Below are positions 6,401-15,713 of a stretch of DNA of 64,000 nt, one piece after another; position 1 is the first letter of the stretch, and every line of letters starts with the position of its first letter. This DNA is from Mesodorylaimus sp. YZB2_4 (lineage: Eukaryota; Nematoda; Enoplea; Dorylaimida; Dorylaimidae). Location: contig JASANH010001539.1 of NCBI GenBank assembly GCA_030248295.1, positions 248,001 through 312,000 of the forward strand, in the 5' to 3' direction. A program made the translations under genes and the position numbers. Below the pieces are notes generated by a model. It had not been told where the DNA came from. It did no database searches and worked only from the letters and a program-made list of their open reading frames with translations.

Positions 6401-8530
6401 TCATGGCCAGGAGGCAAACAGGAAAGTCGAGATCAGTGCGAGTAAAGGAAGCGTCTTCATGACCCGGAAAGCGGGAATAACGTTAGGAGTGAACAAGTGA
6501 GCGGAATATGAGTCAGCATTGAGGCGTTTTCTTACCAAGCGATTTCGAATGACGGAGAAAACAATAGATCGACGAATAGAATTCCCAATGTTTTGCTTAA
6601 TAGCGGATGGCGGATGCGAAATTCCAATGTGTTTCAGCTGAACATACATGCCAAAATTAAGCGGATGAGGAAATACGTTTCGTTTCCGAAGCAGTAAGGA
6701 ATTCTTTGCTGAGGCCACTTTCTCCAAACTTGTGGTACATCGGATGATGCCCTCTGCGTCGACGAAGGTGCGTAGATTAGAAATCGAATTGGGTGCATTA
6801 GAGAAGACGTGATCAGCTTGACTATTAACGTGAGTGGGTACGTTATCGACGCATATGCCATTTAAAATTTTCTTTGATACAGGACTTTCGCACTTCTTCA
6901 GATCATGGGCTTTTGTTGCCGTTTCAAGGGAAGATAAGGTGACGATGTCAGATGAAGGAGCTGATATTTCAGGAGAAGTGGGAAATTCGTTGGGCGACTT
7001 GGAGAGGAAATCAGGTTCCTTCGAACACGGGTTGAGGGCAGCGACAATTACCATGGAGTCATCTTGCGATGTTGTTTCTGCTGGACTTGAATTTCCAAGG
7101 ACGAAGCGAGACGAGATCGTAGAGTGTAGACCATTCTCGAACTTGCGTTGTACTGGTTCATCGTTAGCATCTGGTGAACAATAACGAATTCCAAGTCGTT
7201 CAGGTTTCAAATTTGTCGAAGGATCGGCCATGTTTATGGCATGCGAATCGAAAGACTTCAGGCTAAGCGAATCGATTTGAGAGTGAGTGTTCGTGAGAAG
7301 AAGCGTCGTATGTGAGACGATGTTTGCCGATTCATTCGTAGTAGAGGGGGTTGGTGATTCTCCTTTTCCAGTAAGGATCCACCCCAGACAAGAAGGAATT
7401 AGAGATAGCGGAGTGCTTCCAGGCACTGTGACGCTGGAGTCAGCGAATATTTGATCCCAGCATTCTGCGCCAATCAGAATGTCGACAATACGGGACTCAG
7501 AAGTATACGGGATAGTATCGGCTAGATCATAGGACTGCAGGAATGTCTCAGCTTCAGGAGATAGGGCTGCCATCGGGCGAATCGTCGGGTCGGTTATCTT
7601 CGGAATCACATAGGCTGTGATGCTGAGATCGAAGCCATCGCGAGTGCGAATGGAGAAAGCTACCAAGCGGGAACTGAAGGAATTCATGATGCCACCGAAA
7701 GAAGAGACGCGAATCTGCTCTGTTCGAATAACAGGAGCACCAATTCGCCGAGCGAATTCTGAAGTAACGTAGGATCGTTGACTTGCAGAATCAAGAACAG
7801 CGTGGCCATCGAAGAACGGCTTTGATGGACCAGAACGAGCGGTGATCTTGGCGGACCGCATGAAAGAGGAGCGAAGAGGACTTGGAGCTATGCAGGACGT
7901 CGTTTGTCCAGATGAGGGACCAGTCGCTGATTGAGACGTAGTAGAGGAGGAGGAAGAAGCGCAGAGCGAACGATGATGCCTTTCATGGCAAGATGGGCAG
8001 TTCTTAGTACTTTCGCAATCACCAATGCGATGACTGCTAGACAGACAGTTGAAGCAGAGTTTCTTTTCTGAACATTGCTTCTTGCGATCATTAGGCGTCG
8101 GATACTTAGAGCATTCGCTTGGCCAGTGATTCCCATTACAAAGCTGGCACATAGGCGATTTCGTTTGAGAGGGTTGAGAGGCACGGCGGTTATTCGTAGC
8201 GGAGTTATTCGTAGCGAGATTCATCGTTGTAAAGACGCGTTGGCGACTAGCTGCGTTCTGAGCGAGGGACCGATTCCTTACGTGTTCTGACGTTCCAACT
8301 TCAGGAGACGACGCAGTATTACGAGAGCAGTTTTCCATATATTCTGAGGTTTCGATATGATCTTGGAGTAGGATGATCAGGGACTCGACGATGAACGGCT
8401 TCTTACCGTTTTCTTTGAACAATTTCATCGCGAGAGTAGATGGAAGAAGATCTTTGAGCATGATCGCGAGGCTAGGATCGTTTTGAATTGGAACGCCAAG
8501 AGCAATGAGCGAATGGTAGCTTGCGTTCAA
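6401..8530 (-). mobile_element. BEL/Pao retrotransposon gag-protease frame, internally deleted
   Basis: This 709-residue open frame has the order typical of BEL/Pao. First comes the end of the DUF1759 gag region, then two Cys/His knuckles (CQLCNGNHWPSEC; CFNCLSSSHRIGDC), a DUF1758-type aspartic protease with the active-site motif VLDSASQRSYV, and the conserved CLGWILTGKG. After that, reverse transcriptase and RNase H are missing. The frame passes through unrelated-looking sequence to a stub of the integrase zinc-binding region (FVDAEGIIR, then KHIGISH, then PAFRV) and stops. An internal deletion of over 2 kb of pol makes the copy non-autonomous, although the frame itself stays open. Confidence 0.8.
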
Positions 8531-8566
8531 CTCGTCAAAGAAATTACGCAGCGCGCGTGCCTCGTT

Positions 8567-9175
8567 CTAAGGTGCCTTGAGTGCGTGAATGTTCTGCACA
8601 TGTTTGGTGACTATGAGATCTTTCTTTCCGAAACGATCTTCGATCGTTTTCAAAGCGACGGCGTAGTTCTCGCTCGTCACGGATAACCCTTCAATAGCCC
8701 TAGCGGCCTGACTTCCCTCTTTCCATGAACTCTTGGTACTCTTGGTGCTGCCGCGTGCTGCCGCGTGCTGCCGCGTGCTGCCGCGTGCTGCCGCGTGCTG
8801 CCGCGTGCTGCCGCGTGCTGCCGCGTGCTGCCGCGTGCTGCCGCGTGCTGCCGCGTGCTGCCGCGTGCTGCCGCGTGCTGCCGCGTGCTGCCGCGTGCTG
8901 CCGCGTGCTGCCGCGTGCTGCCGCGTGCTGCCGCGTGCTGCCGCGTGCTGCCGCGTGCTGCCGCGTGCTGCCGCGTGCTGCCGCGTGCTGCCGCGTGCTG
9001 CCGCGTGCTGCCGCGTGCTGCCGCGTGCTGCCGCGTGCTGCCGCGTGCTGCCGCGTGCTGCCGCGTGCTGCCGCGTGCTGCCGCGTGCTGCCGCGTGCTG
9101 CCGCGTGCTGCCGCGTGGTCCTCTGTCTCCATGGTGGAGTCTTTCTAGAAGATACCCGTATTCAAACATTTCCAC
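8567..9175 (-). pseudogene. BEL/Pao gag N-terminal part disrupted by a minisatellite
   Basis: The unique part of this minus-strand frame (about 8567-8730) reads ARAIEGLSVTSENYAVAL, then RFGKKDLIVTKHVQNIHAL. This is the DUF1759 gag region and belongs directly before the 709-residue frame, one frame away. Upstream, the rest of gag has been replaced by about 37 copies of a 10-base minisatellite that happens to stay open and would encode a repeating ten-residue unit. The first residues are a short unrelated stretch next to the SINE at 9.25 kb. It is very unlikely to make a working gag. Confidence 0.7.
8745..9117. repeat. 10-bp minisatellite, about 37 copies
   Basis: The unit CCGCGTGCTG repeats essentially without variation from 8745 to 9117. 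Because ten is not a multiple of three, each frame cycles every 30 bases, and no stop codon occurs in at least four of the six frames. The artificial open frames on both strands here are therefore a by-product of the repeat. The uniformity implies recent expansion, and the exact copy number may be compressed in assembly. Confidence 0.95.
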
Positions 9176-9249
9176 TAAACGCCTGCTAACTGGATACTCG
9201 CCCGCCTGCTACCTACTCGATGACAAAAGGGTCAAACTTTTTTATTTTG

Positions 9250-10560: not shown

Positions 10561-11345
10561 TTTTCTTGCAGATATTGTCGTGTGTAACTGATCAATTATC
10601 AGCTGATGAAGTTCACTTAGTAGCGGTTCCTGCACGGCACTATCTCAGTGCACCGTCTAAAATCTGCCAATAGATCCATACTGTAAAACACGTGTTTATC
10701 ATATGGTATCACACACACCACACCGCACCGCGTCCTCACACTCACCCACCTCTCAGTCAATCGCTTAGCATACTTTAGATGTTCCAGTGAAAAAAAGCAA
10801 ACGCATTTTTGACGCAAACACAAAAAGGAACAGTTTTAGGTCAAGCTCATAGCCGACCATTCCGTCCATGTGTAGCCTGATATCAGCACATAACCAGCAC
10901 GTCCACTTGGAACTCCAACACTAAATCTCTCCTCACGAGTAAATAAGATATACTATGTACAAAAACTAGCTACAGTAACTGAATAATGCAAAAACTTCAA
11001 AAATATGAACTGATTATAGGCATGCATTAGGACACATTACACCAAAGCCCGCATAATGACTCCCGCTTTGCTCATTACCATATGTGCCAAGGAGGATCGA
11101 ATAAGGAACCATTGCCAAAGATTACATAACCCGAACAAGGTGTGGAAGAATAAAGCACAGACCGGGTCATAATCCGCAGCATAATCACGCACTGAGAGCA
11201 AATCTAATTCAAAACTGGAAAATATCTATAACCACTATGTTCACAAAACACCTTTGCCCATACTAAAATATTTGTCAAAACTTCAAAAATCCTTGAAAAT
11301 TTCTGCCTCGCAAATCTCTCAAGCTCACCGCCCCTTTTCCCAGTC
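10561..11345. other. No gene seen
   Basis: This stretch lies between the chitin-binding fragment and the 3' end of the MBD-F-box gene. I see no exon with supported splice sites. Short CA-rich words occur at about 10705-10745. The right-hand part must hold the 3' untranslated region of the minus-strand gene. Confidence 0.4.
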
Positions 11346-14300
11346 TCACCACGTGGCCACTCGAGTGGTCGACAACTCGGATGACGACACGAAGTCGACC
11401 ACATTCACCACCGTGTTCGGTAACTTCTCCGCAATCCATTCCCGCAAAGCGTTCGTGTCGATATTGGCAATTTTAGACGGCTGCTTAGCACAACAGGACA
11501 TAAACGGCGGTTTTGACATGGTCGAAATATCCACCTCCGATTCCGATGCGTTCTCTTCCATCAATATGCCCAATTCCAATCTCTTCAAACTGGCGAAATG
11601 AGGCACCGCATCCACAGTGCGACGCCAGGTCGGAGCCGGAAACACGCCGTCTAAATCCGGATATAATCGCACTGTATGCAAACGTGGCAACGCTGCGATG
11701 GCCAACAACGGCTGCGTTGCCATCGACGAATTGTAAGAATAATCGAACGTGTATCGAACCACTTCCAGTTCACGTAATTCTTTCAATGCCAACAGTGATT
11801 CCGCCAAGATATCACCAGCTGCTCCAGGTTCGACGTGCTCCAATCTCAGACGACGTAAGTTCGATAAACGACGCAGTTTAAAGAAAGTCTGGAACAAAAG
11901 GATATAAAATGAGCGATATCACCCAGTTCGGGTCAGCTGATCTTGCACCCTCCCTTCTACAAAATCGATTCCCTCATGCTGTAGTGTTGTCTGAGAGCAT
12001 AGATAGAGAAAGAGCTGGGCCTGGGGAGGGGGAGGCAACCCTTTTTTTGGTACAATCTCTTGAAGTTTGACTTACCTCACGCGTCCAGCATATACAATCT
12101 CCTATTTCCAAAACACGCAAAGCCGTCAACGAATCGAGAAATTTAAATACTTTCTCATCCACCGTACGAATATCGAACAAATTCTAAAGCCAAACAGACG
12201 CGCCAACAGCGGTCGTATATCCGAAATATAAACAAATAGCCAGCTAATCCTTACCAAGACACGCAGTTTCGTCAAACACGCCAGCACTGACAATCCATCG
12301 CCGTTTATGTAAACACGATGCCGCCGTCCACTCGGATTAGCAGCCGACACGCGCAATTCCGCCAGTTCCGTGCACGAAGCCAAACTATTCAACGAGCTCG
12401 ATGAAATGCAGTCACTCGTCGACGACCTGCAACAAAAACAACCCTTTTATCACAAGTCACCTAACCGTACTTATCACTCTACTTACGCATCCTTGGTTAA
12501 AGTCATGGTAATAGTACGCATATTTCTACCGCACATTATCGCCGTTGATTCTATCACTTTGGGCAAGACTTGCCCAAAATGAAAACCCCATACAAATTTG
12601 CTTAAAGCCGGCAAGGCCGAATCGATAAATCGGTTCATCGATATGGAACGGCAACCTATTAAATCCACTTCTTCAACACCCCGATTTCTCATAAATTCGA
12701 TCCCCTTCTGCCAACGAGCATCGTCCTTCGACATTCGACAACCTTTCAATCGAGCAAACTTCCAAATTTCTGGACAATACGAGACCATATTCCACGACTT
12801 GCAAACCAAGCGAATGCTAAAAACCAAATTCATTATGTATTTCATGATCTATGATCTTTGACACCTTTCAACTCAGGAGCAGTCTAACTAAAGCCAGGCG
12901 CCATGAAACGATTTACACTCGCCTCACAAAGTAGAGGCCCAAGCAGTAATCGATCCTCTTCCTGGAGCAAGCAGCTGGAAGCGTCATCCGTCAAGATGAT
13001 GTTTCAGCCATAGACTAGGCGGAAGACTTGGGGCTGCCCCAGCTCCACTAGTCACCACTCCCTCATATTATACGGACCCGGCCGTTTACAAAGACTCCTT
13101 TGCTTCCACCAAGCCTCCAACCCAAGCGCACATTCCATTTCACTTACTTTAACAAATCTCGTACACTCAATTGCTTGAATATCAGAGCCAATGTCTTAAT
13201 ATAGTCGTTGAAGCGTCCAAACGGGAAAGCAATAGGTGACGATTCAACCATGTCAGGCAGCTCCACAACTTTATTCCCATTTACGATCACCAATGCCTTC
13301 GTCTCCATATTTTCCACATCGATTGTCTAGAAAGAAATTTTCGCATAATCGATTTATCAGTCGATAATCAGCAAACAAAAGTTACCATATCAAGTGATGG
13401 ACTCGCACAACGGACACGCTCAACTTCACCTCGACTGTCTTCCTGCACCGTTGTGACCAGGACGGCACTCGAGTCCGATAAGCTCACAGTCGATAGCTCA
13501 CACGCGGACGAAGGAGGCAAAAGACTCGAGGGAACGTTGTTAGGGACAAGTGAAGATGCCAGATATGGTCGTTCCCCGTGATCTCCCGCAGCATCTAATG
13601 TCGTGTCCCCTCTCATTATTCCATCCGTTGATCCCAGTTCGATGGCCGAAGACTGGACCGAAGTGAAGACCACTTCCTCCTCTTCCTTCTCCACCGTGCA
13701 TTCATTGCACTCAAACTGCAAAGATGATAGAATACGACCCTTCGCCAATAAACAATCTTTGTGAAATAATCTCAAGCAGCCGATGCACGGAACTGATGCC
13801 CATTTGCTCTCTCGTACTGGACATTCGTTCGAACAGGTGGGCACACGGTAGTCGTGTTCGGACGACGTCTCAGATCCGTCACGAGTCGACGAAGCGCGGC
13901 TACTTCCATCGCCGTGCCTCGGTGGACAAATACTTTTGCGAGCTTTGTTCTTGAAGTTGGACAGAGTCGTAGAAGTAACTTCTTGATCTTCAATTGCAGG
14001 AATGCTGTTCGTCGTAATCGATTTCAATAAAGCGTTTCGCTGGCGTTGAGATTCACTAATGGCAACTTTGCGCAACTTCTGCATACGGCTATTTTTTGAT
14101 ATGGCTGGTGGTTTTTCTGATCCGACCACTGTTAAAGATGACGATACAGTCGATCCTTGAGTCGGTTTCTTCTTTGGACTCACAGTGACGCTTTGAGATA
14201 CGACAGGTGTACTTCCACTTGTGGTCGAAGCAGGGATCCTGAGAAACGCGATCAGCATCAGCCATGAATTGAAAACAAAATCGAAACTAACTTACTCCTT

Positions 14301-15713
14301 GGACAAAGGACGGTCCTCAAAAAGACTCATCAATTTTAATTTCCTTGGCGCACCAGTCTCGTTCGGCCTAAACATAACAGAACTTTGAGTTGCGAGTCAC
14401 CACAATGGACGTCACGATTTGATCTTACCCAGCATTGGTGTGATCGCTCGATGAATCATCATCGCTGCAGTCTTCTTCGTCGGCGATATGAGTAGGTGTC
14501 GTGCTGAACCTTTTCCCTGGAGACCGCGCCGCCTTGGAGTCGTCGAGTTTCCTCTTTTTTATCTGTGGTTTTGGAATCGAAATCGGCGTAGTCTTGATTT
14601 CGTCCACAGAGCTCAGCGTTTCGTGCTTCTTTGAAGCTTCTTCCAGTCTAAAACATTTCCTCATGTAAAATAAGTTTAAAAAAGTTTGTACGTAACGGGT
14701 TACTTTGCTAATTCAGGACACAGCGTGCCTTTGACAATCTCGGCGCCTGGTATTTCGTTGAATCCGATTATAATACGACGGAAACTAAAGTTCTCCCGGG
14801 TGACTTTCTCGTTCGCTGTTCTGACTGTAAAAAACATTCTGATAATGAATCTGAGCTTCAAGAAAGGCAACAAGCTTACGATAATCATCGACTTCGGGCA
14901 TGGATCTTAAACGGATACCATTCGGAGCTATATAATAGACGTCCGCCTCGCTACCTTTTTTCTGAGTTTTGCGATAAACAAGTTCTCGTTTCCATCCTGT
15001 AAAGGAGAAGATTCAACTGGTTTTCAAAAGTCCGCAAAAATGTTCTTACCATGCCAAAAAGGCTTCTTATATAATTCGCGCTCTTCAGCCGTGAAATCGG
15101 GTCTACATTTTCGTCCTTGCTTCGAACTACTGACCAATGCATTGTCAAAACTTTCATTGTGGCCTACACCTTTCTTGAGCGGCCGTCCGCGCTTTTTCTT
15201 TTTTGGCTTTACCGCCGCCATCGCCGCTGCCTTTCTTTTCCGCTTATTGGCTTGAACGGCCGCTACGAAATCATCCCGCCACGATTTGCTACTCGACGGA
15301 GCGGACGAGGACGACGAAGTCAGGGCCGAAGCCGGTTTTGATCCCGATCCAAGTTTTGCTGCCCATTTGGCCGCGGCATATGACGGGCTACTTTGAGCAG
15401 CTGGGACATCGTAATCGCATCCAGTATTTATTTCGACGGGTGTACGAACGGAATCGAAAGAAATACGTTCCTCTTTAACTATTATTGCACTAGCCACATT
15501 ATCCGTAAGTGGCGGCGTTTGATCGCGAAGGTCGGCCATCATGCGACGCAAATCATCATCATCACCGTCGTTGGTCGGAACAGTCGAATTCACACTTTCA
15601 TTCCTATCGTCTACCACGCCCTCTAGATTACGCTGCGGCGGCTCGTCTACATTTGCCGTTTCACGGTCTTCAGTGCCGATTTGATCTCCTCGAGCTCGTT
15701 CGTTTGATTCCAT
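11346..15713 (-). CDS. MBD-PHD-F-box-LRR protein (KDM2/FBXL19-like), 11 exons
   Basis: Exons on the minus strand: 15713-15050, 14996-14880, 14824-14704, 14647-14429, 14367-14296, 14238-13386, 13326-13148, 12816-12487, 12426-12255, 12183-12076, 11888-11346. All splice sites are GT-AG and the phases close exactly to give 1125 residues. The order is: a disordered Lys-rich N-terminus with an AT-hook-like KKKKRGRPLKKG; an MBD at about 222-265, followed by the REHFSF-like extension seen after BAZ2 MBDs (here RENFSF); a nuclear-looking basic stretch; a PHD finger at about 533-578 with a full C4-H-C3 ligand set; an F-box at about 715-765 (SVRDLL, RLVCKSWN); and leucine-rich repeats to the end. PHD plus F-box plus LRR is the layout of KDM2A/B and FBXL19, but no JmjC or CXXC is visible. 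Inference: a nuclear SCF ubiquitin-ligase adaptor recruited to methylated CpG. It is head-to-head with the TIL gene at 16.1 kb. Confidence 0.85.

What the first reader, a model, noticed from the sequence alone, without database searches (positions are those of the whole stretch)
11346..15713. One protein joins an MBD, a PHD finger, an F-box and leucine-rich repeats
Eleven exons with GT-AG junctions close in frame over 1125 codons, so the domains appear to lie on one polypeptide. Known relatives (KDM2A/B, FBXL19) combine CXXC, PHD, F-box and LRRs, with or without JmjC. Here an MBD takes the place of the CpG-reading CXXC finger and no JmjC is visible. I know of no described protein with this order. 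It would tether an SCF ubiquitin ligase to methylated rather than unmethylated CpG.
Basis: partly seen in the sequence, partly recalled or inferred. Interest (0 to 1): 0.9.

Follow-up and report, generated by a model that had tools for sequence, protein, structure and literature searches.

The report
Methyl-DNA reader fused to F-box protein
A roundworm gene appears to encode one protein that joins a methylated-DNA-reading domain to an F-box and leucine-rich repeats, which suggests a protein-tagging enzyme steered to methylated DNA, although no RNA or protein evidence was available to test it.

Summary
On the minus strand (15713-11346) eleven exons with GT-AG introns join in frame into 1125 codons. 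Pfam finds an MBD (E 8.9e-15) and an F-box (E 8e-8) above curated cut-offs; LRRs reach E 2e-5 but lie under theirs. The PHD is a complete C4HC3 pattern that profiles score weakly. The MBD is not BAZ2's: a BAZ2-like gene is on another contig.

The genome is a nematode's (133 cuticle-collagen matches) with DNMT1 catalytic motifs and SRA domains, so a methyl-CpG reader has a plausible mark. The MBD keeps the methyl-CpG contact residues of MBD2.

I read it as an independent fusion of an MBD gene, from a family expanded in this genome, with an FBXL-type protein: probably an SCF receptor directed to methylated CpG. One-polypeptide structure is well supported by sequence; transcription and function are inferred. 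Ten literature searches listed no described case.

The parts
11346..15713 (-). whole predicted coding region, 11 exons, 1125 codons plus stop
15050..15713 (-). exon 1: acidic N-terminus, basic stretch with an AT-hook-like RGRP core (aa 169-181, motif recalled), start of the MBD
14880..14996 (-). exon 2: core of the MBD (GWKRELVYRK...DVYY...LRS)
14704..14824 (-). exon 3: end of the MBD and a C-terminal extension (ENFSFRRIIIGF..AEIVKG); its beginning is shared with BAZ2 TAM domains and with other copies in this genome
14429..14647 (-). exon 4: basic then acidic linker
14296..14367 (-). exon 5: short linker exon
   Evidence: coding score barely above neutral
13386..14238 (-). exon 6: linker and PHD-like C4HC3 finger (aa 533-578, about 13698-13835)
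13327..13385 (-). intron 6, 59 bp, the only gap between PHD exon and F-box exon; no AATAAA inside it, but one lies at 13275 in exon 7
13148..13326 (-). exon 7: first part of the F-box
12487..12816 (-). exon 8: second part of the F-box and start of the LRR region; intron 7 splits the F-box
12255..12426 (-). exon 9: leucine-rich region
12076..12183 (-). exon 10: leucine-rich repeats
11346..11888 (-). exon 11: leucine-rich repeats and C-terminal tail, stop TGA at 11348-11346

Best explanation
A nematode gene, single copy in its F-box/LRR half, encodes a 1125-residue nuclear protein formed by fusion of a methyl-CpG-binding protein with an FBXL-type F-box protein. The MBD, with an AT-hook-like basic stretch before it, places the protein on methylated CpG. 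The PHD-like finger reads a histone tail or steadies the contact. The F-box binds SKP1 and so CUL1/RBX1, and the leucine-rich repeats hold the substrate. The result would be an SCF ubiquitin ligase that modifies chromatin proteins at methylated DNA, perhaps at repeats. Shown by sequence: one continuous set of exons, an MBD with the contact residues of MBD2, an F-box, LRR-like repeats, and DNMT1 and SRA domains in the same genome. Inferred: transcription as one mRNA, nuclear location, DNA binding, SKP1 binding, ligase activity, substrate and target sites.
For: One frame over 11 exons with GT-AG introns. Assigned frame best in 10 of 11 exons and stop-free in 11 of 11. Intron 7 lies inside the F-box and introns 1 and 2 inside the MBD; the PHD-to-F-box gap is a 59-bp intron without AATAAA. 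MBD and F-box above Pfam cut-offs. Aligned to MBD2 without a gap in the loop, the MBD keeps R230, D240, Y243 and R252 (residue roles recalled); BAZ2A has lysine at both arginine places. The BAZ2A TAM domain shows no preference for methylated DNA, which its authors ascribe to unconserved contact residues (PMC4446428, passages). The F-box/LRR half is single copy: 5 of the 6 matches are the gene itself and the sixth has E 0.8. DNMT1 catalytic motifs on C60 (by eye) and 7 SRA matches on 4 contigs, 5 of them over the cut-off. In one survey of 42 nematodes DNMT1 was detected in two (PMC8821070, passages).
Against: No RNA or protein data. The PHD is weak by profile. The LRR match is below its curated cut-off. 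BAZ2B, in the same alignment listing, also has arginine at both places (with Glu for Asp and a shorter loop), so these residues alone do not prove methyl-CpG reading. CpG is not depleted: o/e 0.93 in the window, median 0.93 over 252 one-kb windows, so methylation may be sparse; the CpG transition test is mixed. No AATAAA lies within about 545 bp after the stop, while one lies in exon 1 (15432) and one in exon 7 (13275), so the 3' end is uncertain. The Pfam F-box match starts at profile position 9, so the first helix has diverged.
Confidence: 0.45

Rival explanations
1. The same fusion protein exists, but the MBD binds RNA or DNA without regard to methylation, as the BAZ2A TAM domain does, so the F-box is brought to chromatin by another mark.
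For: Best solved relatives by E-value are BAZ2A/B TAM domains and the C-terminal extension starts alike. BAZ2B shares the two arginines. The TAM extension binds RNA (PMC4446428, passages). CpG is not depleted in what was sampled.
Against: The four contact residues and the MBD2-like loop length are kept; the RW of BAZ2A, which I take for the RNA-binding R545/W546, is absent. DNMT1 motifs and SRA domains are present.
Confidence: 0.28
2. Two genes: an MBD-PHD gene and a separate F-box/LRR gene, perhaps in a nematode operon, wrongly joined at intron 6.
For: Nematodes use operons (recalled). Exon 6 can be read on to a stop at bases 16-18 of intron 6, and an AATAAA lies at 13275, inside exon 7. A nearby MBD paralog shows no PHD, F-box or LRR match in 29.7 kb.
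Against: The gap is 59 bp, the size of most other introns, with GT-AG signals and no AATAAA of its own. Joining keeps the frame; the first ATG of exon 7 is out of frame (read).
Confidence: 0.08
3. It is the animal's KDM2/FBXL19 orthologue in which an MBD replaced the CXXC finger and JmjC was lost.
For: Same order of kinds of domain (DNA reader, PHD, F-box, LRR). No CXXC/F-box gene was seen: 3 CXXC matches in 2 genes, neither with a visible F-box in the 10 kb read. The only JHD match is in a KDM7-like gene.
Against: PHD_4 not listed for the protein. FBXL3 and SKP2 chains, no KDM2 chain, are listed for the F-box/LRR half. In KDM2A, CXXC and PHD form one module (title); here about 255 residues separate MBD and PHD.
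Confidence: 0.1
4. The protein is a SKP1-bound chromatin scaffold, not a ligase receptor, as proposed for KDM2B in a Polycomb complex (recalled).
For: F-box proteins on chromatin can use SKP1 as a structural partner (recalled); no call bears on it.
Against: None tested; the architecture fits a ligase receptor equally well and no Polycomb-binding element was looked for.
Confidence: 0.15

Closest known systems
[quoted passage not shown]
   Same: CpG-reading domain with F-box and LRRs on one protein without JmjC (PMC3685328, passages; the PHD of this family recalled)
   Different: CXXC reads unmethylated CpG; here an MBD.
BAZ2A/BAZ2B TAM domain
   Same: MBD fold with the start of the extension after it; best E-values among solved chains
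   Different: No DDT or bromodomain here; the genome's own BAZ2-like gene is on C415 with bromodomain matches about 6 kb after its MBD. BAZ2A lacks the two arginines, BAZ2B keeps them; both have a shorter loop.
MBD2/MBD1 methyl-CpG binders
   Same: Contact residues and loop length, seen for MBD2
   Different: No PHD, F-box or LRRs in those proteins (recalled); the genome has a separate MBD2/3-like gene on C119.
FBXL3 and SKP2
   Same: F-box followed by leucine-rich repeats; weak sequence matches, E 0.25 and 0.58
   Different: No DNA-binding domain or PHD (recalled).

Membership tests
Methyl-CpG-binding domain proteins | MBD above the curated profile cut-off | tested here: met
   54.5 bits against 21
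Methyl-CpG-binding domain proteins | arginine fingers, Asp and Tyr that contact methyl-CpG (roles recalled) | tested here: met
   R230, D240, Y243, R252 aligned to MBD2; BAZ2B also has both arginines
Methyl-CpG-binding domain proteins | preference for methylated DNA | not testable with these tools
   needs a binding assay
FBXL (F-box/LRR SCF receptors) | F-box above the curated cut-off | tested here: met
   PF12937 32.4 against 24.3; PF00646 24.2 against 20.5
FBXL (F-box/LRR SCF receptors) | C-terminal leucine-rich repeats | tested here: inconclusive
   LRR_14 E 2e-5 but 24 bits under a cut-off of 40; LxxLxxLxL motifs at aa 900-988 spaced 25-28
FBXL (F-box/LRR SCF receptors) | binding to SKP1/CUL1 | not testable with these tools
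   needs co-purification
KDM2/FBXL19 | CXXC finger | tested here: not met
   none listed in the protein; the 3 genome matches are on C13 and C28
KDM2/FBXL19 | PHD of the PHD_4 family (assignment recalled) | tested here: not met
   not listed for the protein or the isolated piece; 0 of 9 genome matches over the cut-off, the gene not among the listed places
KDM2/FBXL19 | AMN1-type LRRs | tested here: inconclusive
   no AMN1-named model listed, LRR_14 instead; I do not know that Pfam holds an AMN1 model
KDM2 | JmjC demethylase domain | tested here: not met
   none listed
BAZ2 | DDT and bromodomain downstream of the MBD | tested here: not met
   none listed in the protein; 0 of 31 bromodomain matches are on C126, 2 are on C415
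PHD finger | C4HC3 zinc ligands and profile match | tested here: inconclusive
   pattern complete, 0 of 50,000 shuffles; profile 14.3 bits against 24

The most novel reading that the evidence does not exclude
The first SCF ubiquitin ligase receptor that reads methylated CpG directly, made by fusion in a nematode lineage that kept DNMT1, and belonging to an MBD family that also spread through the genome as intronless repeat copies. The fused protein would remove or modify proteins at methylated repeats, possibly competing with repeat-borne MBD proteins for the same sites.
Probability: 0.25. Interest if true: 0.85.

Novelty: new variant of a known kind. Interest (0 to 1): 0.62.

Why it matters
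KDM2 and FBXL19 bring F-box machinery to unmethylated CpG. A protein that brings it to methylated CpG would be the mirror case and would link 5-methylcytosine directly to ubiquitin marking. It sits in a nematode with DNMT1 motifs and SRA domains; one survey detected DNMT1 in two of 42 nematodes (PMC8821070, passages). It is directly testable by RNA, binding and pull-down assays.

Tried and rejected
BAZ2 neighbour: rejected, because the BAZ2-like gene is on C415. KDM2/FBXL19 membership: not granted, on CXXC and PHD type; the LRR type stayed open. That the genome lacks KDM2 is not shown: C. elegans has a KDM2 counterpart, JHDM-1 (table passage of PMC5934874), and a diverged one could be missed by the JHD search. 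Operon split at intron 6: judged unlikely. CpG depletion as a sign of methylation: not found. CpG transition excess between copies: over all six alignments 59 of 432 CpG sites against 51 of 508 GpC sites; in the two repeat pairs 30 of 277 against 18 of 360 (p 0.006), but this comes from one pair (L020/L023, p 0.001), while the other (p 0.66) and the two DNMT1 copies (29 of 155 against 33 of 148, p 0.48) show none. The NCBIfam scan gave nothing (its models serve prokaryotes). Literature: ten searches listed no title or abstract start that describes MBD and F-box/LRR on one protein. Not every hit was listed: 20 of 36, 10 of 61, 10 of 12; the other lists were complete. I saw passages of PMC8821070, PMC3685328, PMC5934874 and PMC4446428 and nothing more than listings of the rest. 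No eukaryotic genome other than the window's own could be searched, so absence elsewhere is unproven.
Full report
What is there. The window holds a gene on the minus strand from 15713 to 11346. I rebuilt it from the sequence: eleven exons, ten GT-AG introns, one frame, 1125 codons and a TGA. Seven of ten introns are 53 to 61 bp; the others are 71, 187 and 331 bp. A codon-usage score trained on seven other open frames of this genome ranks the assigned frame first among six in 10 of 11 exons; exon 3 is the exception, and the scores of exons 2, 3, 5, 8 and 10 are near zero or negative in themselves. The assigned frame is free of stops in all 11. A divergent neighbour on the plus strand, TIL-type by my own reading, has its likely ATG about 0.36 kb upstream, which leaves little room for further 5' coding exons such as a JmjC domain.

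Domains. Pfam finds an MBD at residues 217-277 (54.5 bits, cut-off 21), an F-box at 728-761 (32.4 bits, cut-off 24.3) and a leucine-rich stretch at 903-998 (E 2e-5, but under its cut-off). The isolated C-terminal half gives the same with lower E-values. LxxLxxLxL motifs recur at residues 900-988 with spacing 25-28. The PHD finger is the soft spot. Residues 533-578 hold a complete C4HC3 pattern, which 0 of 50,000 shuffles of the protein produce (I set the pattern with this sequence in view). Profiles score it low (PHD 14.3 bits against a cut-off of 24, E 0.042) and the PDB matches start at E 0.034 (AIRE PHD). Before the MBD lies a basic stretch with an RGRP core, AT-hook-like (motif recalled).

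One polypeptide or two. Introns 1 and 2 cut the MBD and intron 7 cuts the F-box, so neither domain can be split off at those points. The likeliest border between two genes would be intron 6, between PHD exon and F-box exon: it is 59 bp with normal splice signals and no AATAAA inside. Splicing keeps the frame, and the first ATG after the acceptor is out of frame (read). Against this, exon 6 can be read on to a stop 16 bases into the intron, an AATAAA lies in exon 7 (13275), and none lies within about 545 bp after the predicted stop. I judge a two-gene reading unlikely, but only RNA can exclude it.

The organism and its methylation system. The genome has 145.1 Mb and 133 matches to the nematode cuticle-collagen domain. 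Two DNMT1-like places exist. The C60 copy shows catalytic motifs, including PPCQ and the final IGNAVPPPL stretch, in open frames; the C67 copy reads PPCR (by eye). Seven SRA matches fall on four contigs, five over the cut-off. The PF00145 search found no third methyltransferase place, but introns can hide one and the tool calls its counts lower bounds. A survey of 42 nematodes reports DNMT1 in two, Romanomermis culicivorax and Plectus sambesii, the latter without a detected DNMT3 (PMC8821070, passages). Our genome fits that second pattern, but I cannot name the species. CpG is not depleted in the sampled DNA (270,227 bases, o/e 0.96), so methylation may be sparse or confined to repeats. The transition test on repeat copies is mixed.

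The MBD. The best solved relatives by E-value are BAZ2A/B TAM domains, then MBD2. Against MBD2 the alignment has no gap in the loop before DVYY and keeps R230, D240, Y243 and R252 (roles recalled). BAZ2A has lysine at both arginine places and a one-residue gap in the loop; BAZ2B has the gap too, but keeps both arginines and has Glu for the Asp, so these residues are suggestive and not decisive. The BAZ2A TAM domain shows no preference for methylated DNA and binds RNA, with R545 and W546 most important (PMC4446428, passages). The window protein shares the beginning of the C-terminal extension but not the RW of BAZ2A. So it looks like a methyl-CpG-type MBD with a TAM-like tail. Reading methylated CpG is the likeliest role, RNA or indiscriminate DNA binding the main alternative.

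Relatives inside the genome. Of 13 MBD places, by my reading 2 are an MBD2/3-like gene (C119; I read the first of the two), 1 is BAZ2-like (C415), 1 SETDB1-like (C61), 2 are on C126 (this gene and a paralog about 39 kb away, MBD to MBD), and 7 belong to a dispersed family. The C126 paralog is 53 and 59% identical over its two MBD pieces and has the first two introns at the same positions and phases (by eye), but tblastn with the whole protein found no PHD, F-box or LRR match in 29.7 kb around it. The dispersed copies read through the MBD without introns; 5 of 7 have no stop inside the match, while C989 and C63 have one. Two pairs share pieces of 1.1-2.9 kb at 94-96% identity, and one member as query gives 16 matches at 14 places. 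At E<=0.1 the window protein finds these copies and not the MBD2/3-, BAZ2- or SETDB1-like loci. The F-box/LRR half is single copy. The simplest history is that an older MBD gene family existed and one copy gained the PHD/F-box/LRR part, but direction is inferred.

Comparison with known proteins. FBXL19 resembles KDM2A/B without JmjC, with a CXXC domain that reads unmethylated CpG (PMC3685328, passages); that KDM2A uses a CXXC/PHD module is the title of PMC5388433 (listing). The window protein works as an analogue with the opposite CpG preference, but it fails tested membership features: no CXXC and no PHD_4 listed, and the reader domain is about 255 residues from the PHD. The LRR class is open. 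Weak matches of the F-box/LRR half are to FBXL3 (E 0.25) and SKP2 (E 0.58). No CXXC/F-box gene was seen: the three CXXC matches belong to a tandem-CXXC protein and a CFP1-like gene (by eye), and the only JHD match lies in a KDM7-like gene with a PHD before its JmjC (by eye). C. elegans has a KDM2 counterpart, JHDM-1 (PMC5934874, table passage), so a diverged KDM2 could have been missed here.

How it most likely works. The MBD and basic stretch bind methylated CpG; the PHD-like finger adds a histone contact; the F-box recruits SKP1-CUL1-RBX1; the LRRs present a chromatin substrate for ubiquitylation. Only the sequence features are shown. Confidence: one polypeptide about 0.9, methyl-CpG reading about 0.6, SCF receptor about 0.7, all together about 0.45, counting that these are not independent.

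Novelty. Ten literature searches listed nothing describing such a protein; some lists were capped, the library lacks most subscription journals, and no other eukaryotic genome could be searched. I call it a new variant of a known kind: a new domain combination built from known parts.

Noticed in passing
L017, L018, L019, L020, L023, L024, L025 (contigs C280, C67, C989, C150, C745, C153, C63): A dispersed family of intron-free MBD-encoding copies, closest to the window gene's MBD; two pairs share 1.1-2.9 kb pieces at 94-96% identity, one member finds 14 places, and 2 of the 7 have a stop inside. It looks like a repeat-borne or retroposed MBD family.
   Followed up: partly
L014 8400-9200 (C126 about 223.4-224.2 kb, + strand): MBD paralog about 39 kb from the gene's MBD, with the same first two MBD introns but no PHD, F-box or LRR match in 29.7 kb.
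   Followed up: partly
L029 and L030 (C60 and C67): Two DNMT1-like copies, 87% identical in DNA over pieces of 1.0 and 1.5 kb; one reads PPCQ, the other PPCR at the catalytic motif.
   Followed up: partly
contigs C22, C526, C600, C702: Several SRA (UHRF1-type) domain places, including two with identical scores on C526 and C600.
   Followed up: no
L027 4064-5536: A 491-residue open frame with two tandem CXXC fingers and a Gln/Ser-rich tail, not obviously KDM2, DNMT1 or CFP1 by eye.
   Followed up: no
window 6404-9208, minus strand: A retroelement-like frame (BEL/Pao gag by eye) next to a long GC-rich tandem repeat that is open in several frames.
   Followed up: no
window 10800-11345, minus strand: No AATAAA in about 545 bp after the stop codon, so the true 3' end may differ.
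   Followed up: no
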